Below, in pieces: positions 1,500 through 10,633 of a DNA stretch of 10,930 nt. The notes under the pieces are model-generated. The model was given only the letters and a program-made list of their open reading frames with translations. It had not been told where the DNA came from and did not search any database. This DNA comes from Hyphomicrobiales bacterium (GTDB lineage Bacteria; Pseudomonadota; Alphaproteobacteria; Rhizobiales; JAJFHC01). Position numbers and translations under genes: made by a program. Location of the stretch: assembly GCA_021775835.1 (NCBI GenBank), contig JAJFHC010000304.1:1-10930 (forward strand). Reading direction: 5' to 3'. Numbering within the stretch: position 1 is the first letter of the stretch; each line of letters starts with the position of its first letter.

Positions 1500-2603
1500 A
1501 TGGACCTTGGCTTTTTCATGATTCCGTCGCATCCGCCGGAGAGAAAGCCCTACGATTGGAACCAGTATGATTTGCAGGCTCTAAGGTGGGGCGACGAGCT
1601 TGGTGTCAGCGAAGCGTGGGTCGGCGAGCATTTCACTGTCGCCTGGGAGCCCAATCCTGCGCCGGATCTGACGATTGCCCAGGCACTGCTTCAGACCAAA
1701 CGGATCAAGCTCGCGCCTGGCGCTCACCTGCTCCCGTATCACAATCCAGTTGAGTTAGCGCATAGGGTTGCGTTCCTTGATCATCTAGCGCAGGGGCGCC
1801 TGCAGCTTGGCGTGGGCGTCGGTGACCACTTAGGTGACTTCATGGCATTTGGCGTTGACGGCCAACATGGCGAAAATGTCGTCATGATGCGCGAAGCTCT
1901 CGAGATCATGCTGGGTATCTGGGCGGCGGAGGGCGAGTTCAAATTTGACGGCAAGTACTGGAACGTGCACATCCCGCCGGAGATGATTGAGGGCAACTAT
2001 CGCCATCACATGCACACCTTCACTAAGCCACATCCTCCGATCGGCGTGACGGTGCTCGTGCCGGAGTCTGAGCCGATCAAGCTCGCCGGTTCACGCGGAT
2101 ACATGCCGTTGAGCATCTATTTCAATGATACATACGCCGTTGGTCTTTGGGAGAGTTATGCGAAGTCTGCGGAAGCTGCGGGAATCAAGCCAGATCGCAG
2201 CAAGTGGCGCCTGTATACCGAAATCCTGGTTGCCGAAACCGATGCTGAGGCAGAGCGCCTGGCCTTTGAAGGGCCGCTCGGCAGAGCTTGCCGCGAGTAC
2301 GTTTGGCAGTTCTGCAAGGCATTCGGCTTTCTCACCCATTTGAAGCACGATCCCGCAATGTCGGATGAGGAAGTGACGCCGGAATACTTCATGAAGACGA
2401 GTTGGATCATCGGATCGGTTGAAACGGTCACCGACAGGATCGTCAACATGTACGGGGCCACCGGCGGCTTTGGCACCTTGCTGTGGAACCCGACGGACTG
2501 GGGTGATCAGCCCGAGCGGATGCGCCATACGCTGGAGTTGCTGATCAAAGAAGTAATTCCGCAAGTGAACAAGAGAGTGAAGCCCCTACCGGCGCTGGAG
2601 TGA
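1500..2603 (+). CDS. LLM-class (luciferase-like) flavin-dependent monooxygenase
   Basis: This 367-residue protein belongs to the bacterial luciferase-like family, whose members use reduced FMN and oxygen to oxidise alkanals, terpenes, sulfonates or N-heterocycles. Typical marks are the first strand MDLGFFMIPSHPP, AWVGEHF at 39-45, the long HNPVELAHRVAFLDHLAQGR block at 81-100 followed by LQLGVGVGD, and the C-terminal GSVETVTDRI plus GATGGFGTL. Length matches full-length LLM proteins of the limonene-monooxygenase-like branch, but substrate cannot be read from sequence. The start is fixed by AGGAGG at 1489-1494. The stop is only eight bases before the next gene, a SnoaL-like protein, so the two are probably one transcript. 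A separate flavin reductase would be needed and is not in the window. Family call is secure; any named substrate would be a guess. Confidence 0.92.
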   Translation: MDLGFFMIPSHPPERKPYDWNQYDLQALRWGDELGVSEAWVGEHFTVAWEPNPAPDLTIAQALLQTKRIKLAPGAHLLPYHNPVELAHRVAFLDHLAQGRLQLGVGVGDHLGDFMAFGVDGQHGENVVMMREALEIMLGIWAAEGEFKFDGKYWNVHIPPEMIEGNYRHHMHTFTKPHPPIGVTVLVPESEPIKLAGSRGYMPLSIYFNDTYAVGLWESYAKSAEAAGIKPDRSKWRLYTEILVAETDAEAERLAFEGPLGRACREYVWQFCKAFGFLTHLKHDPAMSDEEVTPEYFMKTSWIIGSVETVTDRIVNMYGATGGFGTLLWNPTDWGDQPERMRHTLELLIKEVIPQVNKRVKPLPALE

Positions 2604-2611
2604 GGTCGAAA

Positions 2612-3007
2612 ATGTTCGAAGAAAAGAAGGAATTTGTACGGAAGTTTTTGAGCACGATGGATGCGCAGGATTGGGATACATTCAGAGAAATGATGGCCCC
2701 GGAGCATAAGTTCAACTCACCTCTTGGCCCCGCAATGGGGCGTGACGAGCACGTTGGACTAGACAGAGATTTCTTCAAGTCCTTTGACGCCAGGCACTAC
2801 ATTCTCGACATGGTGGCAGAGGGAGACAAGGTCGCGACTCGCGGCAAAACCACCATGGTGCACAAAGGAGAGTTTCTAGGCATCCGCCCAACAGGAAAGC
2901 ACATTGAATTGCACTGGCTGGACATCATGCGCGTTGAGGGCAGTAAGAATGTGGAGGAATGGCTTACCATGGACCTGATGGGTCTCATGCAGCAACTGGA
3001 AGCATAG
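2612..3007 (+). CDS. SnoaL-like / NTF2-fold small protein
   Basis: The product is 131 residues from the ATG at 2612, with GAGG at 2602-2605 six bases upstream; a GTG at 2600 in the same frame is less likely because it overlaps the preceding stop codon. It fits the SnoaL-like polyketide-cyclase family of the NTF2 fold: an N-terminal helix (KEFVRKFLSTMDAQDWDTF), GRDEHVGLDRDFFKSF around 43-58, AEGDKVATRGKTT around 69-81, then GEFLGIRPTGKHIELHW and the closing MDLMGLMQQLE. The Asp at 121, before LMGLMQQ, sits where SnoaL cyclases carry their acidic catalytic residue. The family includes cyclases, isomerases, epoxide hydrolases and many unassigned proteins. Being eight bases downstream of a flavin monooxygenase suggests that it processes the oxygenated product, perhaps by hydrolysis or isomerisation. 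That role is inference. Confidence 0.85.
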   Translation: MFEEKKEFVRKFLSTMDAQDWDTFREMMAPEHKFNSPLGPAMGRDEHVGLDRDFFKSFDARHYILDMVAEGDKVATRGKTTMVHKGEFLGIRPTGKHIELHWLDIMRVEGSKNVEEWLTMDLMGLMQQLEA

Positions 3008-3014
3008 CGATTTC

Positions 3015-3040
3015 AAGGTCTGTAGTGGGTCAAAATGCCT
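3015..3040 (+). repeat. short dispersed repeat, copy b
   Basis: The segment starts seven bases after the SnoaL-like stop codon. Its first 19 bases match copy a at 1297-1315 with one change, and GTGGGTCAAAA (3026-3036) is also found at 131-141 where the long repeat copy 1 begins. It occupies most of the 47-base gap before the transglutaminase-like gene. Confidence 0.6.
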
Positions 3041-3054
3041 GGTAGCATGATGTT

Positions 3055-3744
3055 ATGAAAAGACTTGCAGACTACGATCATCCTATCGTCAAAGAGACCG
3101 CTGGGCGCTTGACCCAAACTGAGACGACCCTGCGCGGCAAAATTGAGCAGTTATTCCTTTTTGTTCGGGATGATATCCGGTTCGCATTTCCCGACGATGG
3201 CGACTTCGTCAAGGCATCGGACACAATCCGTTTGGGATACGGGCAATGTAACACCAAAGCGACTTTGTTGCTTGCTCTATGTAAGGCTGTGAACATACCG
3301 GCGCGCATCCACTTCTCGCTTATCACCAAAGACATTCAGAAGGGTTTTTTTACTGGCTTTCTCTATTGGCTAATGCCGCCGGAACTCTCTCATTCCTGGA
3401 TCGAAGTTGAAGTTGACGGCAGCTGGAGGCGTATCGACACCTTCATCAATGACCTGCCGTTGTTTAACGCGGCTATAGCCGAGATCAAACGTCGTGGCTG
3501 GTCGGTCGGCTATTCGGTTGCGTTGAAAGACGGCGATGCCAGCGCGAAGCTCGACCTCGATCATGAGGTATATCAACAGATGGCGGCTGTGACTGACGAT
3601 CACGGCATTTGGGATGATCCGTCCGCCTATTATGCAAGTTCGAAGTATCAGAACCGGCCCGGCCGGTTACGGCTGTGGTTCTATCGGCAACTGATAGGCG
3701 GGATAAACCGTCGTGTTGAACAATTGCGCGATGAAAACAATTGA
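3055..3744 (+). CDS. transglutaminase-like superfamily protein
   Basis: This 229-residue protein carries a transglutaminase-like (papain-fold) domain. The catalytic triad is visible in order: Cys65 in GYGQCNTKATLLLALC, His113 in LSHSWIEVEVDG and Asp128 in WRRIDTF, with the usual hydrophobic stretch LLLALCKAVNIPARIHF after the cysteine. Bacterial members act as proteases, amidases or crosslinkers of unknown targets. A short hydrophobic stretch near 98-108 (FFTGFLYWLMP) may line the active site or touch a membrane. There is no signal peptide, so it should be cytoplasmic. The start ATG at 3055 has only a weak ribosome binding site, possibly because the repeat at 3015-3040 fills the gap. Its end overlaps the next gene by 14 bases, which argues for a coupled pair. 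The C-terminal 60 residues are basic and of unknown role. Confidence 0.85.
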   Translation: MKRLADYDHPIVKETAGRLTQTETTLRGKIEQLFLFVRDDIRFAFPDDGDFVKASDTIRLGYGQCNTKATLLLALCKAVNIPARIHFSLITKDIQKGFFTGFLYWLMPPELSHSWIEVEVDGSWRRIDTFINDLPLFNAAIAEIKRRGWSVGYSVALKDGDASAKLDLDHEVYQQMAAVTDDHGIWDDPSAYYASSKYQNRPGRLRLWFYRQLIGGINRRVEQLRDENN

Positions 3745-4198
3745 ATTGGAAACGTTTCTGCCGGCGGAAGCCGCGACTGTGTGGGATCATGTTCTTCAGC
3801 CGCGTCTGTTGCGCTTTGTCGCTAAAGGCATGCTGACGTTTCAACCAATCGACCCGGATATGTTTCCTGAGCGTTGGTCCGATGGCCAGTACAGAGTTCA
3901 GAAATATTTCATGGGGTTGCTGCCGATTGGTTGGCAGGACATCGGCATTGAGCTCTTGCCAGATCAAGGTCACATGCATCGTATTCGCGATAATGGTCGT
4001 GGCTGGCTTATACCTATCTGGGACCATATAATTGAAGTCGAGCCTGTTGACGGCGGAACTCGATATGTCGATCGTGTGAAGATCGAAGCTGGAATTCTGA
4101 CACCCTTGGTGGCGGGTTTCGCCCGCCGCTTCTATACCCACAGACAGCAACGGTGGCTGAAGCTTGTCGCGGCCAATTTCGACTACTCAGTCTCATGA
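3731..4198 (+). CDS. SRPBCC-family (START-like fold) small protein
   Basis: The ATG at 3731 lies inside the end of the transglutaminase-like gene, giving a 14-base overlap and likely translational coupling; a longer frame opening at 3713 has no better signal. The 155-residue product begins with a strand (KTIELETFLPAEAATVWDHV) typical of SRPBCC/polyketide-cyclase-like proteins, followed by alternating beta strands (GQYRVQKYFMGLLPIGWQDI, HIIEVEPVDGGTRYVDRVKI) and a long closing helix (LVAGFARRFYTHRQQRWLKL). The fold forms a deep hydrophobic pocket for lipids, aromatics or similar ligands. No catalytic residue is evident, so ligand binding or product handling is as likely as catalysis. The consistent coupling to a transglutaminase-like protein is the best clue to its job, but the target is unknown. 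Confidence 0.72.
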   Translation: MKTIELETFLPAEAATVWDHVLQPRLLRFVAKGMLTFQPIDPDMFPERWSDGQYRVQKYFMGLLPIGWQDIGIELLPDQGHMHRIRDNGRGWLIPIWDHIIEVEPVDGGTRYVDRVKIEAGILTPLVAGFARRFYTHRQQRWLKLVAANFDYSVS

Positions 4199-4613: not shown

Positions 4614-5480
4614 ATGAAAATTGCATTCTTGGGACTTGGAACCATGGGTGCACCGATGGCGCGGTGTTTGAAGCAGGCCGGCTTCGATGTGGCCGGATGG
4701 GACACTGTAGAGACCATGCGGGCGAACGTGGACTTCTGTGCAGACGATGTTGGCGAGGCCATGAACCAGGCCGATGCCATTGTCACCATGTTGCCTGCGG
4801 GTCCAGATGTCGAAACAGTTTACAGCGATAGCGCCCTGGCCGCGCTACCGGCCGGCCGGCTGTTGATCGACTGTTCCACCATTGACGTGGACACCACGCG
4901 GCGCCTTGCAGAGCGTGCCGAACGCCATGGCCACACCCTGCTCGACGCGCCGGTGTCAGGCGGGGCCGAAGGGGCCGGTCAAGGCGCCCTCAGTTTCATG
5001 GTGGGGGGCAGCGCTGAAGGCTTCGAACGGGCCAAGCCGGTGCTGGAGACCATGGGCACAAAGATCACCCATTTCGGCGCCAGCGGCACTGGCCAGGCCG
5101 CAAAAGCCTGCCACAACATGATCTGCGGCATCACCGCCCTTGGCGTGTGCGAGGCCTTTGCCCTGGCAGATGGGCTAGGTCTTGATGCCGACAAGTTCTT
5201 CTCGCTTTGCCAGGGTGCAGCGGCGCAAAGCTGGATTCTTGAAAACAGATGCCCCGTGCCTGGGCCGGCCCCCGCCGCGCCCAGCTCAAACGATTACGCT
5301 CCCGGTTTTGCCGCACGGCTGATGGCCAAAGACCTGGGCCTTGCCCAGGCTGCGGCGAACTCTTGCGGCCAGGAAACACCGTTTGGCGCCCAGGCCGCCG
5401 AGCGCTTTGCCGCGTTTGCAGAGGGCGCTGAAGGCAATCTGGATTTCTCGGCGATCTATCGCACGATCCGCAAAGAGTGA
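4614..5480 (+). CDS. mmsB: 3-hydroxyisobutyrate dehydrogenase-type beta-hydroxyacid dehydrogenase
   Basis: The 288-residue product is a beta-hydroxyacid dehydrogenase, NAD(P)-linked and cytoplasmic. In order it shows the dinucleotide-binding GLGTMG at 7-12, the substrate signature DAPVSGGAEGAGQGALSFMVGG at 111-132 (positions only as guide), the catalytic Lys164 in GTGQAAKACHNM, and MAKDLGLA at 237-244. The segment PVPGPAPA (215-222) with NDYAPGF (226-232) is the pattern of true 3-hydroxyisobutyrate dehydrogenases (valine breakdown) rather than tartronate semialdehyde reductase, although this is not proof of substrate. The start is the ATG at 4614, six bases after AAGGA (4603-4607); a TTG at 4584 in frame is less likely. 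It converges on the minus-strand flavoprotein with three bases between stops. It may serve valine breakdown or reduce or oxidise a hydroxyacid from the neighbouring operon. Confidence 0.88.
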   Translation: MKIAFLGLGTMGAPMARCLKQAGFDVAGWDTVETMRANVDFCADDVGEAMNQADAIVTMLPAGPDVETVYSDSALAALPAGRLLIDCSTIDVDTTRRLAERAERHGHTLLDAPVSGGAEGAGQGALSFMVGGSAEGFERAKPVLETMGTKITHFGASGTGQAAKACHNMICGITALGVCEAFALADGLGLDADKFFSLCQGAAAQSWILENRCPVPGPAPAAPSSNDYAPGFAARLMAKDLGLAQAAANSCGQETPFGAQAAERFAAFAEGAEGNLDFSAIYRTIRKE

Positions 5481-5483
5481 GGC

Positions 5484-7943
5484 TTAGGCTTTCAGACGTG
5501 CGTTGGATGGATCATAGAAATGAGGCCGAACGCAAAGGGCTGCACAGGGACGTCCGAGAACTTCAATCGTGAAGCTGTCTCCCAGACCGCCCGCGCCATT
5601 TTCCACATAGCCCAAGGCTATGCGCTTGCCGGTGCGGCAGCCAAATGCAGCCGATGTTACATACCCCACCACCTTGCCGTCCCTGGTGATCGGGTCGCTG
5701 GGCATTGCGTCTGCGTCTGCGTCTGCACTCTCAAGCTCAAAGCCAAAGAAGCACCACTCAGGGTCCTGGCCCGCCATCTCTCGGGCCGCCTCTTGGCCAA
5801 TGAACGGGGCTTTATCCAGGGCAACGAACTTCTCCAGGCCTGCATCAAAGGGCGTGTATTCGCTGCCGAAGTCAGCGCCCCATCCGTGATAGCCCTTTTC
5901 GACACGCATTATGTTGAGGGCATAGGAGCCAAAGTCGCGCAGGCCGACTGCGGCGCCCGCCTCGCTGATGGCCGCATATAAATCTGGAAGATCTGAGGAG
6001 CGCGCATGGATCTCCCACCCAAGCTCTCCCACATAGGAAACCCGCATGGCGATGACAGGCGTGCCGGCAATCTCGATTTCGTGGACCGACATCCATGGCT
6101 GGGCCTGCGGCGACAGATCAGCGGTGGTGAGGCCGGCGAGGAGCGCGCGCGACTTGGGCCCCATGACCATGAGCGCGCCATCAAACTCTGAACCTTGACG
6201 CAAGATCACTGACCCGTCGTCAGGACAATGCGCACGCAGCCAGTCATAATCGCGATCAACCGCCAATGTGGGCCCGCACAGCAGGAAGCGGTCTGCGGCA
6301 AGACGGGCAATCGTGGCCTCCGACCAAAGCCGGCCCTTGGGCGTGAGCATGTAGGAGAGCCTGACCCGGCCAACCCCTGGCAGCTTGCCGCAAAACACAT
6401 GCTCAAGAAACGCCGCTGCCTCTGGCCCCTCAACCTCAAACTTGGTGAACCCGCCGTGGTCCATGATGCCCACACCATCACGCACGGCTTCACATTCCGC
6501 CCGCACTGCATCGCGCCAGGGTTCGTCATCACGGAAGCTCAAATGGCCATAGCCGTCTGCCGGCGGAACGTGCGGTTTGCCGTCTGGTTCAAACCAGAAG
6601 GCCCGTTCCCAGCCGCCAATCTGGCCGAACACGGCGCCCTTGGCTTGCAACGTGTCATACAGGGGCGTGCGGTTGACCGGGCGCGCAGACTGCAGAATGC
6701 GGTGAGGATAGGAGATGGCATATTGCAGACCATAATGCTCCGAGGCCCGTGCTTGGGCGTAGGCGCTGTCGGCCCAGACTCCAAAGCGCCGTGGGTCCCA
6801 GGCTGAAAGATCCCATTCGGTTTCACCCTCGGTGATCCACTCTGTCATGGCTTTGCCAATCGCAGCAGAATGGGTGATGCCAATCTGGACGCCGGTGGCC
6901 TGATAGAAGTTCGCCAGGCCCGCCGCAGGCCCAACCAGAGGCAAGGCATCAGGGGCATAGGCAATCGGCCCGTTGACGCAGCGCTGAACCCCGGCCTCGC
7001 CCAGCAACGGCACATGGGAGACGGTTTCCTCCAGCACCTCTGCAATGTCATCGAGACTATCAGGGAAAAGCTGATGGGCGAATGCATCCGGCGGCCCGTC
7101 CGGCCAAGCGGCCCGGCCGTCATGCGCGTAGGATCCCAACAGGAAGCTCGAGCGTTCGCGGCGCAAATAGAACCGGATGTCCGGATCTCGCACCAGGGGA
7201 AACACCGTCTGATCGTTCTCAAGCTGGTCCAACGCCTCGGTGACCAGATATTGATGCTCCAGGGTGGTCACCGGCACAGCGGCACCGGCAAGCTGTGCGA
7301 CTTGGGCTCCGTAAAATCCCGCCGCGTTGATCACGATCTCGCAACTGACCGTTCCCTTGTCCGTCTCCACCTGCCACCCGCGGTCGGCGGTTTGGGAAAG
7401 CCCGACCACTTTGGTGAAACGGGCAATCTCCGCGCCCTTGTCGCGCGCGCCCTTCGCCAGCGCCTGGGTGAGCTGGCTTGGGTCGATGTCGCCCTCATAG
7501 GGATCATGGATCCCGCCGATTACCCCGCCCGGCCTGTCAGCGTGCGCTTTGTAATAGGGATGCATCGCCTCCATATCTGCTGGAGTGATCATCGCCAACT
7601 CAAACCCGGCAGACTTGGAAACACCAACCAGGTGGCGGAACAAATCCATCCGCTCTTCCGTGTGAGCTGGCCAGAAGGCGCCCGTGTGCCGGTAGGTGAT
7701 GGGCACGCCCACCTTGTCGCCAAGCTCCTTGTAGAGCGCCCAGGCATAGTTGCCGGCCCGCATACCCAGCCAGCTTGTGGCATAGGTGGGGATGTTGCCA
7801 GCCGCGTGCCAGGTTGAGCCGGAGGTCAACTCATCGCGCTCGATGAGCAAAGTGTCGGTGATCCCGGCCTCTGCCAAATGATAGAGAATGGAGGTGCCGA
7901 CGGCGCCCCCGCCAATCACAACAACCCGGGCGTGATCGCGCAT
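5484..7943 (-). CDS. dimethylglycine/sarcosine dehydrogenase-like FAD protein with GcvT half
   Basis: This 819-residue, two-part enzyme resembles dimethylglycine dehydrogenase and sarcosine dehydrogenase. Residues about 6-365 form the FAD-binding amine-oxidase (DAO) half with VVVIGGGAVG at 7-16. In mammalian relatives the His of the conserved GSTWHAAG (here 42-49, His46) carries covalent FAD. A short FAO_M-type linker covers about 370-425. Residues about 428-705 match GcvT, with SYVGELGWEIH at 636-646 and MRVEKGYHGWG at 679-689, followed by a GcvT C-terminal barrel to about 810. The family oxidises N-methyl groups of glycine derivatives, and the GcvT half hands formaldehyde equivalents to tetrahydrofolate. 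It is the last gene of the operon, starting two bases after the previous stop with no good ribosome binding site, so translation is probably coupled. An acidic alanine repeat at 740-746 comes from a DNA hexamer repeat. The exact amine is unknown. Confidence 0.9.
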   Translation of the reverse strand: MRDHARVVVIGGGAVGTSILYHLAEAGITDTLLIERDELTSGSTWHAAGNIPTYATSWLGMRAGNYAWALYKELGDKVGVPITYRHTGAFWPAHTEERMDLFRHLVGVSKSAGFELAMITPADMEAMHPYYKAHADRPGGVIGGIHDPYEGDIDPSQLTQALAKGARDKGAEIARFTKVVGLSQTADRGWQVETDKGTVSCEIVINAAGFYGAQVAQLAGAAVPVTTLEHQYLVTEALDQLENDQTVFPLVRDPDIRFYLRRERSSFLLGSYAHDGRAAWPDGPPDAFAHQLFPDSLDDIAEVLEETVSHVPLLGEAGVQRCVNGPIAYAPDALPLVGPAAGLANFYQATGVQIGITHSAAIGKAMTEWITEGETEWDLSAWDPRRFGVWADSAYAQARASEHYGLQYAISYPHRILQSARPVNRTPLYDTLQAKGAVFGQIGGWERAFWFEPDGKPHVPPADGYGHLSFRDDEPWRDAVRAECEAVRDGVGIMDHGGFTKFEVEGPEAAAFLEHVFCGKLPGVGRVRLSYMLTPKGRLWSEATIARLAADRFLLCGPTLAVDRDYDWLRAHCPDDGSVILRQGSEFDGALMVMGPKSRALLAGLTTADLSPQAQPWMSVHEIEIAGTPVIAMRVSYVGELGWEIHARSSDLPDLYAAISEAGAAVGLRDFGSYALNIMRVEKGYHGWGADFGSEYTPFDAGLEKFVALDKAPFIGQEAAREMAGQDPEWCFFGFELESADADADAMPSDPITRDGKVVGYVTSAAFGCRTGKRIALGYVENGAGGLGDSFTIEVLGRPCAALCVRPHFYDPSNARLKA
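5707..5726. repeat. hexanucleotide tandem repeat inside the flavoprotein gene
   Basis: Three perfect GCGTCT units plus GC encode, on the minus strand, the ADADADA run near residues 741-747 of the flavoprotein. The unit length keeps the frame, so gain or loss of a unit would only lengthen or shorten a surface loop in the GcvT C-terminal region. Confidence 0.85.
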
Positions 7944-7945
7944 GG

Positions 7946-8650
7946 TCAGTGCTCGGAAAAGAGGCGGCCGTAGCCTTGCAGTTTATCGTCGATGCCGATA
8001 GCGCGCAGGGTTTGCCAGTAGACTGCCGCGTTGCAAGCCACAATGGGTTTACCCAGTTCGGCTTCCAACTCGTCGATGATCGCCACCACCGGCAGCGCGG
8101 TGCCCACCTGCAAAATCGCATCGCACTCGCTCTTCGCGATGGCGCGGAACACCGCTTTGATGTCCTCAATTGGTGTCTCGCAGATGGCGGGCAGTGAGGG
8201 CGCTTCGGTGCCCTTGATGGCAACCACGTCGAAGCCGGCCTCTTCGGCGTTGGCCTTCACCACTTGGTCCACCTCGGCGTTGAACGGGGTAACAATGGCA
8301 ATCTTCTTCGCACCAAAGGCCTTAAGGCCAGCATGGTCAGCCTCGGAGGCATTGAACACGGGGATGCCGGTTGCAGACGCAATATCTGCGCAGCGGGCAG
8401 CAAGCTTGGTCACGCCGCCGGGTCCGGCATCTGTGGTCAGGCCAATGGCGAGGGCGGCCGGACCGCAGTCCATAAGCTTTTGAGCTTCATCCACCACATC
8501 GTCGGACACCGTGTCGCCGCCCAGCCGGAAGCGCTGCATTTGGTTGGTCACACCTGGTGGGCACAACAGCTCGAGCTCCGGCTGTACAACGGTGTTCATC
8601 GCCGGCGTCATAACACCGATAATAGCTCTGGGCGCGAGGGTGTCTGCCAT
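7946..8650 (-). CDS. Asp/Glu racemase / maleate isomerase / arylmalonate decarboxylase-fold protein lacking usual cysteines
   Basis: The 234-residue protein has the two-domain fold of maleate isomerase and arylmalonate decarboxylase. It opens with IGVMTPAMNTVVQPELELLCP, has GIPVFNASEADHAGLKAFGAKKIAIVTPF (about 95-123) linking the halves, and closes with GYGRLFSEH, very like the decarboxylase ending. Members normally use one or two cysteines. The first position, usually in a (C/G)TS loop after a hydrophobic strand, reads AIGLTTDAG (68-76). The second, LSCGG in the decarboxylase, reads ILQVGTALP (179-187), so Val182 stands where the catalytic Cys is expected. Cys206 in IVACNAAVYW is nearby but at a position where relatives usually have Ser or Ala. 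It may therefore be a different lyase or isomerase, or a non-catalytic binder. It starts four bases after the SRPBCC stop, with AAAGGA upstream. Fold is sure; activity is open. Confidence 0.8.
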   Translation of the reverse strand: MADTLAPRAIIGVMTPAMNTVVQPELELLCPPGVTNQMQRFRLGGDTVSDDVVDEAQKLMDCGPAALAIGLTTDAGPGGVTKLAARCADIASATGIPVFNASEADHAGLKAFGAKKIAIVTPFNAEVDQVVKANAEEAGFDVVAIKGTEAPSLPAICETPIEDIKAVFRAIAKSECDAILQVGTALPVVAIIDELEAELGKPIVACNAAVYWQTLRAIGIDDKLQGYGRLFSEH

Positions 8651-8654
8651 ATAG

Positions 8655-9089
8655 TCAGGTTCCTTTCAGGTAATCGTTTAAGCCTTGCATTCCGCCGATA
8701 TAGATGTCGTCACCGACGATTTTCTCCATGGCCTCAGCCTGGTCTTGTGCACAGCTAAATGTGCTCTCCCAGATGCCGAGGGTTTGTGCGCTGTGGGTGA
8801 TGGGCAAGAACCGATGAGTGGAGACATAGTCCTCCACCGGCAACGGGCTTTCCAGAATGTCGTAGGTATAGAAGTGTTCAAGGTCGGAGTGGGCGAGCAA
8901 AGTTTCCCGGAACACCGAGCCGTCCACAATACCCAGATGGCGTATCGACCCGGTTTCGCATGCATGCCCGCTCTCCATGTGCGCGGCCGCAACCCCCGGA
9001 TTCCAGTTGACCACTCCGTCAAATGCCCGCACGGCGGCCCAAACCTTTTCTACGGAGGCATTCAGGATCATGCTTCGGTAAACCTTCAT
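8655..9089 (-). CDS. SRPBCC-family (START-like fold) small protein
   Basis: This 144-residue product starts at the ATG 9089-9087 with AGGA seven bases upstream. It has the SRPBCC layout: first strand MKVYRSMILNASVEKVWAAV, a helix with FDGVVNWNPGV, then strands GSIRHLGIVDGS, FRETLLAHSDLEHFYTYDIL and LPVEDYVSTHRFLPI, and a final helix (EAMEKIVGDDIYIGGMQGLN). The Trp-Asn-Pro after the first helix and the ligand-pocket strands fit the plant-PR10/polyketide-cyclase-like branch. It differs from the SRPBCC protein at 3731-4198. Placed between a methyltransferase and a racemase-fold protein with gaps of 23 and 4 bases, it probably binds or processes an intermediate of the same pathway. No catalytic residue can be named with confidence. 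Confidence 0.85.
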   Translation of the reverse strand: MKVYRSMILNASVEKVWAAVRAFDGVVNWNPGVAAAHMESGHACETGSIRHLGIVDGSVFRETLLAHSDLEHFYTYDILESPLPVEDYVSTHRFLPITHSAQTLGIWESTFSCAQDQAEAMEKIVGDDIYIGGMQGLNDYLKGT

Positions 9090-9112
9090 GGAAATTTCCT
9101 TTGGTGTTCAAC

Positions 9113-10633
9113 TCAGCGCCCAGCCAAACAGATGGGCAGAGCCTGGCGGATCTTTTCTTCAGCGTTGCGCGAAAGATGACTTGGCTCATCGCCCGCAAGA
9201 ATCTCTGCCACACGCTCCTCAGCACGGTCCCAAATCGTCAGGCGGCCGGCATCAATCCAATCATCCACACCTTGTCGGTCGGCGAGGCGCGGATAGACAT
9301 AATCGGTCTTCATGCGCCGCAGTGTTGCGTCCTCTCCAAGATAGTGGCCTTCGCCATCCACCACCCGTTGGATCATCTCCACATCCAGTGCATCGTCGCT
9401 GATCTCAATGCCGCGCACCGAACGCAAGATGGCTCCACACATGTCATCGTCGATGACGAGAGCCTCTGGCGAGGCCACCATGATGGAGCCCAGCATGCCC
9501 ACCGAAAGATTGATCATGTTGGCGCCCGCATGGGCGGCCAGGGCCACGGTGTAGCCCTTCTCATAACCAGCTTGCGCATCGGCCACCTTGGCGTCGGTCA
9601 TGCCGGCAGACACGGTGGAGGGCAGTCCCATGTGCCGCAACAGTTGCGCAGCTGCGGCGCTCGCAATGGCCGCCTCCCCGCTGCCGCCAGACATGGCGCC
9701 GGTCCTCAGGTCAGAGATGAAAGGCATGAGCGCGTAGATGCAAGGCGAACCGGGCGAGATCAAATCCACCAGCATCAGGCCGGCTAAACTTTCAGCCAGA
9801 CCCTGGGCCAGCGCACCGGCGAGCGTGACCGGGCTCGTTGCGCCTGCCTGACCGGCTGAGCAGATTTGCGGGATCATGCCCTGGCGGATGCAAGCCTCCA
9901 GAACCGCGCAGCCTTCCGGCGCAAACCGCAAAGGGGGCACCACATGCACAATAACCCCCATACAGAACGGCCTCGCCCGGAAGGCTCCCTCACCGCCCAA
10001 GGCTGTGTCGAACATGGAAACGGCCGCATCCAAGTGCTGCGGGTCCGAGAAGCTCACGCCAATGGGTTTGCGCGTGGCCTTCATACAGGCGAAGGCGGTG
10101 TTCACATCAAGCGCCAAGGGATCGCTAAGGTCCCGAGCAATCACGGGGCGCACCCCATAGTGGATATTGTCGCACACATCCAACACCCGCATGAGTGCAT
10201 AAAGGTCCTGCAAGGTAGACTCGTGGAATTCTCCCTCACTGGTCTCCAAAATCTGCACGGCGGCACCGCCCGTGCCAATGTGGACGCCTCCACCGCCAAT
10301 GGTCAGGTCTTTGTCCTCAGAAAACCCTGGAAGTTCGACATTTTCAGGCGCCCGGCTAAGAGCGTCTTGAACCATGGAGCGGGGAAAGCACAACCGGGCG
10401 CGGTCATTCAGTCGCGCACCGTTCTTGATGGCTTGTTCACACAGGTTTGCAGGCGTGTCTGCGACTCCCACATCGCTGAGGATCGCAAATGCACTCTCGA
10501 CGATTTTTTCCACATCGCTCTGACGCAACGGAGACAGCATTCCGCCCACCGGCGGGCTTGCCGGAGGAGGCGTGGGCGCGCTCCTACGGCGGGCCTTGGC
10601 TCTTTCTGGTCGTGTTCCTATGTGCCCAGCCAA
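9113..10633 (-). CDS. MttB-superfamily (trimethylamine methyltransferase-like) protein, no pyrrolysine
   Basis: The best start is TTG at 10633-10631, seven bases after GGAGG (10645-10641), giving 506 residues; the frame extends upstream to 10693 without a better signal, and the first ATG, 31 codons in, would remove the basic stretch AKARRRS typical of this family. Family marks are AGATSPVTLAGALAQGLAE (263-281), MSGGSGEAAIASAAAAQLL, GLPSTVSAGMTDAKVADAQA (337-355), AHAGANMINLSVGMLGS and the closing GHYLGEDATLRRMKTDYVYP. MttB of methanogens has an in-frame amber codon read as pyrrolysine; none occurs here, so it belongs to the non-pyrrolysine branch that includes glycine betaine methyltransferase MtgB of Desulfitobacterium. 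That enzyme moves a methyl group to a corrinoid protein. No corrinoid protein is in the window. It leads the four-gene minus-strand operon, 23 bases before the SRPBCC gene. The substrate is probably a methylated amine or betaine. Confidence 0.88.
   Translation of the reverse strand: MAGHIGTRPERAKARRRSAPTPPPASPPVGGMLSPLRQSDVEKIVESAFAILSDVGVADTPANLCEQAIKNGARLNDRARLCFPRSMVQDALSRAPENVELPGFSEDKDLTIGGGGVHIGTGGAAVQILETSEGEFHESTLQDLYALMRVLDVCDNIHYGVRPVIARDLSDPLALDVNTAFACMKATRKPIGVSFSDPQHLDAAVSMFDTALGGEGAFRARPFCMGVIVHVVPPLRFAPEGCAVLEACIRQGMIPQICSAGQAGATSPVTLAGALAQGLAESLAGLMLVDLISPGSPCIYALMPFISDLRTGAMSGGSGEAAIASAAAAQLLRHMGLPSTVSAGMTDAKVADAQAGYEKGYTVALAAHAGANMINLSVGMLGSIMVASPEALVIDDDMCGAILRSVRGIEISDDALDVEMIQRVVDGEGHYLGEDATLRRMKTDYVYPRLADRQGVDDWIDAGRLTIWDRAEERVAEILAGDEPSHLSRNAEEKIRQALPICLAGR

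What the first reader, a model, noticed from the sequence alone, without database searches (positions are those of the whole stretch)
5484..10633. Four-gene operon joining an MttB-type methyltransferase, an SRPBCC protein, a racemase-fold protein and a DMGDH-GcvT flavoprotein
The sequence shows four minus-strand genes with gaps of 23, 4 and 2 bases, so they are almost certainly one transcript. MttB-superfamily enzymes demethylate methylamines or betaines, and DMGDH-like enzymes oxidise N-methylglycines with transfer of the carbon to folate. Putting a maleate-isomerase/arylmalonate-decarboxylase-fold protein and a START-like pocket protein between them is not a pathway I know. It may be an undescribed route for an N-methylated compound whose carbon skeleton also needs isomerisation or decarboxylation; creatinine or hydantoin derivatives and aromatic betaines are possibilities only.
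Basis: partly seen in the sequence, partly recalled or inferred. Interest (0 to 1): 0.72.

Follow-up and report, generated by a model that had tools for sequence, protein, structure and literature searches.

The report
Marine betaine-degradation cluster with swapped module
The four genes are a real, conserved cluster of mostly marine bacteria, probably for stripping methyl groups from an unidentified betaine, and two of them form a removable pair that stands where related clusters keep an aldehyde dehydrogenase.

Summary
In detail: four minus-strand genes, gaps 23, 4 and 2 bases. All four lie together in 38 of 43 loci fetched with the AMDase-fold protein, 31 in this order. MttB and the DMGDH-GcvT flavoprotein match known betaine/methylamine demethylation; 37 of 37 genomes tested hold a small corrinoid-type protein. 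Recurrent neighbours (class III aminotransferase, a diverged 3-hydroxyisobutyrate dehydrogenase, LysR) suggest that the demethylated amine becomes an aldehyde. New point: the SRPBCC + AMDase-fold pair is a detachable cassette. Of 295 genomes of one family, 9 carry the orthologous MttB; 7 of these lack the cassette, and exactly those 7 carry one aldehyde dehydrogenase, absent from 28 of 28 cassette-bearing genomes. On the tree this is two events. The AMDase-fold protein lacks the catalytic cysteine of arylmalonate decarboxylase and both of maleate isomerases/racemases, so none of these names fits. Substrate unknown. Best reading: MttB demethylates a betaine with a terminal nitrogen, the flavoprotein removes further methyls, an aminotransferase makes an aldehyde, and the cassette disposes of it in place of oxidation.

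The parts
9113..10633 (-). Non-pyrrolysine MttB-superfamily methyltransferase (506 aa from TTG 10633; 475 aa from ATG 10540)
   Evidence: PF06253 348 bits; best solved relatives 9yce/2qne glycine betaine methyltransferase about 192 bits and 7xcl M. barkeri MttB 174 bits; start and ribosome-binding site
9599..9601 (-). Codon at the pyrrolysine position of M. barkeri MttB (Pyl334): Met
   Evidence: Alignment; the Rfam PYLIS_3 match (54.8 bits, 9502-9601) starts at this codon, but the frame is open, with no in-frame stop
8655..9089 (-). SRPBCC / START-like protein (144 aa), first half of the cassette
7946..8650 (-). AMDase-fold protein without the catalytic cysteines (234 aa), second half of the cassette
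8429..8440 (-). Conserved L71-T72-T73-D74 in place of the first-cysteine motif of maleate isomerases/racemases (Gly74 in wild-type AMDase)
   Evidence: Alignments
8102..8104 (-). Gly183 in place of AMDase Cys188 (second catalytic cysteine)
   Evidence: Alignments
5484..7943 (-). DMGDH-like FAD + GcvT flavoprotein (819 aa)
   Evidence: 519 bits to human DMGDH 5l46; domain architecture
7806..7808 (-). His46 of the SGSTWHAAG motif, equivalent to the FAD-linked histidine of DMGDH (role recalled)
   Evidence: Alignment with 5l46 and 4pab; conservation
4614..5480 (+). 3-hydroxyisobutyrate-dehydrogenase-like gene, convergent, stop 3 bases from the DMGDH stop; recurrent partner
   Evidence: TIGR01692 325 bits, cut-off 291.6; present in 13 of 43 loci; motif K-x-x-H-N instead of K-x-x-N-N

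Best explanation
A catabolic gene cluster for a quaternary ammonium compound (a betaine) whose nitrogen sits on a terminal carbon, not an alpha-amino acid betaine. Step 1 (inferred from family): MttB passes one methyl to the genome's small, shared corrinoid protein (MtgC type) and on to tetrahydrofolate. Step 2 (inferred from family and conserved motif): the DMGDH-GcvT flavoprotein oxidises the remaining N-methyl groups, giving methylene-tetrahydrofolate and, at the end, a primary amine. Step 3 (inferred from neighbours in relatives): a class III aminotransferase turns the amine into an aldehyde. Step 4 (inferred from the gene exchange): the SRPBCC + cysteine-less AMDase-fold pair disposes of that aldehyde, for example by decarboxylating a beta-formyl acid through an enolate, where sister clusters oxidise it with an aldehyde dehydrogenase; the 3-hydroxyisobutyrate-dehydrogenase-like enzyme works on the corresponding 3-hydroxy acid. 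Shown here: the conserved cluster, the missing cysteines, the mutually exclusive gene content. Not shown: any reaction or the substrate.
For: Cluster conserved in 38 of 43 loci. B12-binding_2 match in 20 of 20 and 17 of 17 genomes, in each of the 37 at least once in an open frame of 198-422 aa, that is not only in a full-size MetH; against 5-19 MttB copies per genome in 20 genomes, as expected if one corrinoid protein serves many methyltransferases. The published model is R. pomeroyi MtgBCD (PMC12478193). DMGDH architecture and FAD-His motif. Class III aminotransferase near 19 of 43 loci (9 of one kind, 10 of another) and LysR near 24 of 43; the first kind resembles omega-aminotransferases. 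HIBADH-like gene in 13 of 43; 7 of the 11 genomes tested that have it in the cluster also hold a second, 43-51% identical HIBADH, so it looks dedicated. Exchange: aldehyde dehydrogenase in 7 of 7 MttB+ genomes without the cassette and 0 of 28 with it, and in exactly those 7 of 295 family genomes; it lies within 10 kb of MttB in 6 of the 7. Two losses of the cassette on the MttB tree.
Against: No substrate is identified. The exchange rests on two evolutionary events on a quick tree, so p-values that count genomes overstate it, and gains instead of losses are not excluded. Five of the 7 cassette-less genomes also carry an extra DMGDH-like gene, so the clusters differ in more than one step and may have different substrates. 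In 24 of 43 loci no aminotransferase was seen in the fetched flank, and the window shows none. The second aminotransferase kind is closest to glutamate-1-semialdehyde aminomutase, which does not make a free aldehyde from a terminal amine. The B12-binding_2 family is unspecific: it also rings in 9 of 14 control genomes such as E. coli. In cassette-less L059 a HIBADH-like gene and the aldehyde dehydrogenase occur together.
Confidence: 0.5

Rival explanations
1. Same demethylation core, different substrates: clusters with the cassette degrade one betaine and clusters with the aldehyde dehydrogenase another; the two modules do not act at the same step.
For: Five of 7 cassette-less genomes have an additional DMGDH-like gene; three have a dipeptide-type ABC transporter protein and two a 2OG-oxygenase-like gene, named by eye. 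Other neighbours differ between loci: sulfatase in 5 of 43; hydantoinase/oxoprolinase-type and Rieske + 2OG genes, named by eye.
Against: MttB and DMGDH stay about 60-67% identical to the window on both sides, and LysR and one aminotransferase kind are shared; the exchange occurs in two places of the tree.
Confidence: 0.3
2. SRPBCC and the AMDase-fold protein are not enzymes but helpers, for example substrate-binding, sensing or MttB-corrinoid assembly proteins.
For: The catalytic cysteine positions of the fold are empty; SRPBCC fold relatives include ligand receptors.
Against: The AMDase-fold protein keeps many near-invariant polar residues in the motifs that hold the active site in the family, and cysteine-less relatives occur elsewhere without MttB or SRPBCC in the three annotated stretches seen. 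A helper would not explain the exchange with an aldehyde dehydrogenase.
Confidence: 0.1
3. One reading: a route for creatinine/hydantoin-type or aromatic N-methyl compounds, with isomerisation or decarboxylation by the racemase-fold protein.
Against: Such neighbours are a minority; MttB-family enzymes of known function act on quaternary or tertiary amines, not on N-methyl hydantoins (established knowledge); the cysteines needed for racemase, isomerase or AMDase chemistry are absent.
Confidence: 0.06
4. An ordinary glycine betaine cluster, with MttB being MtgB and the flavoprotein being DMGDH.
For: Closest solved relative of MttB is glycine betaine methyltransferase, and of the flavoprotein DMGDH.
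Against: The ten other MttB copies read in G010 (of 14 in that genome) match the cluster's MttB family at only 24-29%, so it is a separate branch; glycine needs neither the HIBADH-like enzyme nor the cassette (established knowledge).
Confidence: 0.04

Closest known systems
MtgB-MtgC-MtgD glycine betaine demethylation in Ruegeria pomeroyi (PMC12478193; abstract, Results and Discussion read)
   Same: MttB-superfamily protein in aerobic marine bacteria; core corrinoid protein; methyl groups to tetrahydrofolate; the authors note up to seven PF06253 genes and suggest other substrates
   Different: Divergent MttB family; extra SRPBCC + AMDase-fold cassette, aminotransferase and HIBADH-like gene; substrate unknown
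Non-pyrrolysine MttB superfamily of Eubacterium (MtpB, MtcB, MtyB; named in the Discussion and reference list of PMC12478193)
   Same: Paralogous methyltransferases, each for its own quaternary amine, sharing a corrinoid protein
   Different: Anaerobe; no flavoprotein-folate step or cassette known there (recalled)
Dimethylglycine dehydrogenase (PDB 5l46, 4pab)
   Same: DAO-FAO_M-GCV_T-GCV_T_C architecture, covalent-FAD histidine motif, 519 and 511 bits
   Different: Substrate probably not dimethylglycine, given the neighbours; not tested
Arylmalonate decarboxylase / maleate isomerase (PDB 3ixl, 2xed)
   Different: Cys188 and the first-cysteine position are Gly and Leu; the tyrosine of the oxyanion hole (role recalled) is Phe123; an acidic residue (Asp74) is conserved
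Cysteine-less 'arylmalonate decarboxylase'-annotated proteins on plasmids (L054-L056)
   Same: 34-36% identity, same cysteine loss (motifs GISAETFW or GMSSETFW, and Q-[VC]-GTNL)
   Different: Other operons; no MttB or SRPBCC annotated beside them in the three stretches looked at

Membership tests
MttB superfamily (PF06253) | Profile match over the curated cut-off | tested here: met
   348 bits, cut-off 25
Pyrrolysine trimethylamine methyltransferase (TIGR02369) | Equivalog cut-off and pyrrolysine codon | tested here: not met
   333 bits against 525; Met codon at the Pyl position, open frame; the PYLIS_3 hit I read as coding homology
MttB superfamily (corrinoid-dependent) | Small corrinoid protein in the genome | tested here: inconclusive
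   Met in relatives: 20 of 20 and 17 of 17 genomes have a match in a frame of 198-422 aa; the domain also occurs in MetH (9 of 14 controls ring) and the window's own genome is not held
Glycine betaine methyltransferase MtgB | Activity on, or binding residues for, glycine betaine | not testable with these tools
   Only family-level similarity
DMGDH family | FAD + GcvT architecture and FAD-His motif | tested here: met
DMGDH family | Dimethylglycine as substrate | not testable with these tools
   Needs an assay
Arylmalonate decarboxylase | Cys188 and NF052327 cut-off | tested here: not met
   Gly183 in its place; 75.8 bits against 225
Maleate isomerase / Asp-Glu racemase | Two catalytic cysteines | tested here: not met
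   Leu71 and Gly183, both at 97% or more in the 41-row alignment
EutA (TIGR02990) | Equivalog cut-off | tested here: not met
   67.6 bits against 318
SRPBCC / START-like superfamily | Helix-grip fold | tested here: met
3-hydroxyisobutyrate dehydrogenase (TIGR01692) | Equivalog cut-off | tested here: met
   325 bits against 291.6
3-hydroxyisobutyrate dehydrogenase | K-x-x-N-N motif seen in 5y8g and 3q3c | tested here: not met
   K-x-x-H-N in the 14 sequences that the pattern read (window, 12 of the 13 loci, and L059); L041 has the gene but the pattern did not read it

The most novel reading that the evidence does not exclude
SRPBCC + cysteine-less AMDase-fold protein is a new two-protein enzyme that converts an aldehyde acid made from a demethylated betaine, and was exchanged for an aldehyde dehydrogenase. 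One chemically fitting but untested substrate is the head group of the algal betaine lipid DGTA, 2-(hydroxymethyl)-3-(trimethylammonio)propanoate (structure recalled): demethylated, it is both a beta-amino acid for a class III aminotransferase and a 3-hydroxyisobutyrate analogue for the HIBADH-like enzyme, and its transamination product is a beta-formyl acid that an enolate-stabilising AMDase fold could decarboxylate without a cysteine. This would be the first bacterial route known to me for a betaine-lipid head group.
Probability: 0.15. Interest if true: 0.8.

Novelty: new variant of a known kind. Interest (0 to 1): 0.6.

Why it matters
Roseobacters and other marine bacteria carry many MttB copies (5-19 in 20 genomes here), but in the paper read (PMC12478193) only glycine betaine has an experimentally tied route. 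This cluster is a concrete candidate for another methylated compound in the sea. It also points to a protein pair of unknown chemistry, one of them on a well-studied fold, with a gene exchange that says at which step to look.

Tried and rejected
Filing the AMDase-fold protein as racemase, isomerase or AMDase: rejected on the cysteine positions. My notes said that 'both catalytic Cys' of AMDase are lost; wild-type AMDase has Gly74 and one cysteine (Cys188), so the two-cysteine comparison holds only for isomerases and racemases (corrected here).

Reading the Rfam PYLIS_3 hit as a pyrrolysine signal: rejected, open frame with Met.

One fixed pathway of all neighbours: rejected, because sulfatase, hydantoinase/oxoprolinase, Rieske and transporter genes occur in only a few loci each. 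PdxJ beside DMGDH in L003, L004, L037 and L060 looks like lineage linkage.

Limits. Structure models gave folds, but no coordinates were at hand, so no pocket analysis was done. The family- and class-level searches scored only the top 4-9 candidates per genome, so a miss there is not absolute. A class-level MttB search gave 4 of 385 genomes: two were already known, and the other two (L072, L073) carry the cassette. An order-level AMDase search gave 2 of 61, both known. Neither added a cassette-less case. The homarine pathway paper is not held, so I could not check whether its genes overlap. My ORF caller is home-made; many gene names outside the window are by eye. The tree left out L015 (taken as a copy of L017) and MttB pieces spanning under 350 query residues. 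DMGDH is broken into pieces in L021 and L039. Literature: listings; read: PMC12478193 (abstract, Results, Discussion), passages of PMC9842639 and PMC13390433.

Full report
Check of the observation. The MttB start at TTG 10633 has a GGAGG upstream. Pfam gives MTTB, Polyketide_cyc2, Amdase, and DAO/FAO_M/GCV_T/GCV_T_C. A fifth gene, 4614-5480 on the plus strand, ends 3 bases from the DMGDH stop and passes the cut-off for 3-hydroxyisobutyrate dehydrogenase (HIBADH).

Conservation. A pattern scan of the genome collection (84,980 species, by the tool's description) with the AMDase-fold protein gave 43 loci. All four genes are present in 38 of 43: 31 in the window's order, 6 with DMGDH-MttB and SRPBCC-AMDase back to back, 1 otherwise; 4 of the other 5 stop at an end of the held sequence, and L029 lacks SRPBCC. 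By record titles the hosts are mostly Alphaproteobacteria (many Ruegeria and Roseovarius), some Gammaproteobacteria, two Acidimicrobiia and single MAGs labelled Deltaproteobacteria and Flavobacteriia. Near these loci (thresholds): LysR in 24 of 43, HIBADH-like in 13, class III aminotransferase in 19 (9 of one kind, 10 of another), sulfatase in 5. The window's genes left of the HIBADH-like gene had no counterpart in the other loci.

MttB. It is not a pyrrolysine enzyme: Met stands at the Pyl position and the frame is open. In 20 genomes with the cluster there are 5-19 MttB copies each (1 of 14 control genomes has the family) but a single B12-binding_2 match in 16 of them and 2-3 in 4. In 17 further genomes, with and without the cassette, 12 have one match and 5 have two to six. 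Each of the 37 genomes has at least one match in a frame of 198-422 aa, the size of a stand-alone corrinoid protein; the family alone is unspecific, since 9 of 14 control genomes also ring. In G010 that protein sits near a gene that looks, by eye, like a homocysteine methyltransferase, as in the split methionine synthase/glycine betaine system of PMC12478193 (abstract, Results, Discussion read). That paper notes up to seven PF06253 genes per genome and suggests other substrates. I infer that the window's MttB uses the shared corrinoid protein.

Flavoprotein. It is closest to the DMGDH structures 5l46 and 4pab (519 and 511 bits) and keeps the SGSTWHAAG motif.

The exchange. Searching 295 genomes of the family of G001 (the Tropicibacter genome of L003) for the MttB found 9 with an ortholog at 61-63% identity; the next matches are at 42-48%. 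Only 2 of the 9 (G001, G101) have the AMDase-fold gene. The other seven (L057-L059, L061-L064) have MttB-DMGDH without SRPBCC-AMDase; 5 of 7 have a second DMGDH-like gene (77-100% to that of L058), while the best match in the 28 cassette-bearing genomes is 51%. The aldehyde dehydrogenase that follows the aminotransferase in L058 has orthologs (74-92%) in the other six and none at E 1e-130 in 28 cassette-bearing genomes; in the 295 it occurs in exactly these seven. It is within 10 kb of MttB in six of seven; in G229 it is on another contig (coordinates). Fisher tests by genome give 1e-12 for MttB with aldehyde dehydrogenase, 8e-4 for MttB with the cassette, and 1.5e-7 for cassette against aldehyde dehydrogenase, but on the MttB tree (65 rows, quick search) the exchange is two events (one gain and two losses, or other three-change histories). 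I call it suggestive, not proven, that cassette and dehydrogenase act at the same step.

HIBADH-like gene. The 11 genomes tested that have it in the cluster hold it at 60-78% identity to the window's, and 7 of these 11 hold a second HIBADH at 43-51%, so it is probably not the valine-pathway enzyme. Its motif is K-x-x-H-N instead of K-x-x-N-N.

Aminotransferases. One kind passes the cut-off of the PRK06105 aminotransferase subfamily and resembles omega- and 4-aminobutyrate transaminases; the other is nearest to glutamate-1-semialdehyde aminomutase, below its cut-offs, which fits the aldehyde logic less well.

Literature. Searches for the gene combination listed 1, 0 and 2 papers; I saw the listings only, and by title none is about such a cluster. 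Only open-licence PMC papers are searchable, so absence from print is not shown.

Verdict. A conserved betaine-type demethylation cluster is well supported; the terminal-amine/aldehyde logic and the role of the cassette are inferences; the substrate is open.

Noticed in passing
L048:2189-6465 (G010): Another MttB lies near a gene over the cut-off for cysteate racemase CuyB (NF052483, 266 bits against 190), a GcvT-like protein and a gene that looks like a PLP enzyme: a candidate for an N-methylated cysteate-type compound.
   Followed up: no
20 genomes with the cluster: 5 to 19 MttB-family genes per genome, more than the 'up to seven' stated in PMC12478193.
   Followed up: partly
L015 and L017: Apparently the same 14,950-base contig deposited under a Flavobacteriia (unverified) and a Roseobacter MAG; probably a binning or labelling error.
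   Followed up: no
L013, L024, L025, L028, L039, L059, L064: A sulfatase with some choline-sulfatase similarity (116 bits, under the cut-off, for L024) recurs beside the cluster; the L024 copy has a CSPAR motif. It may release the substrate from a sulfate ester.
   Followed up: partly
window 1500-4198 (+): Luciferase-like monooxygenase, SnoaL-like and transglutaminase-like genes and a small protein without a Pfam match (3713-4198); not recurrent neighbours of the cluster.
   Followed up: no
L029:4639-6884: Two genes resembling DMSP lyase DddP/creatinase (one tested: 268 bits, under the cut-off 600) next to an AMDase-DMGDH pair that lacks SRPBCC.
   Followed up: no
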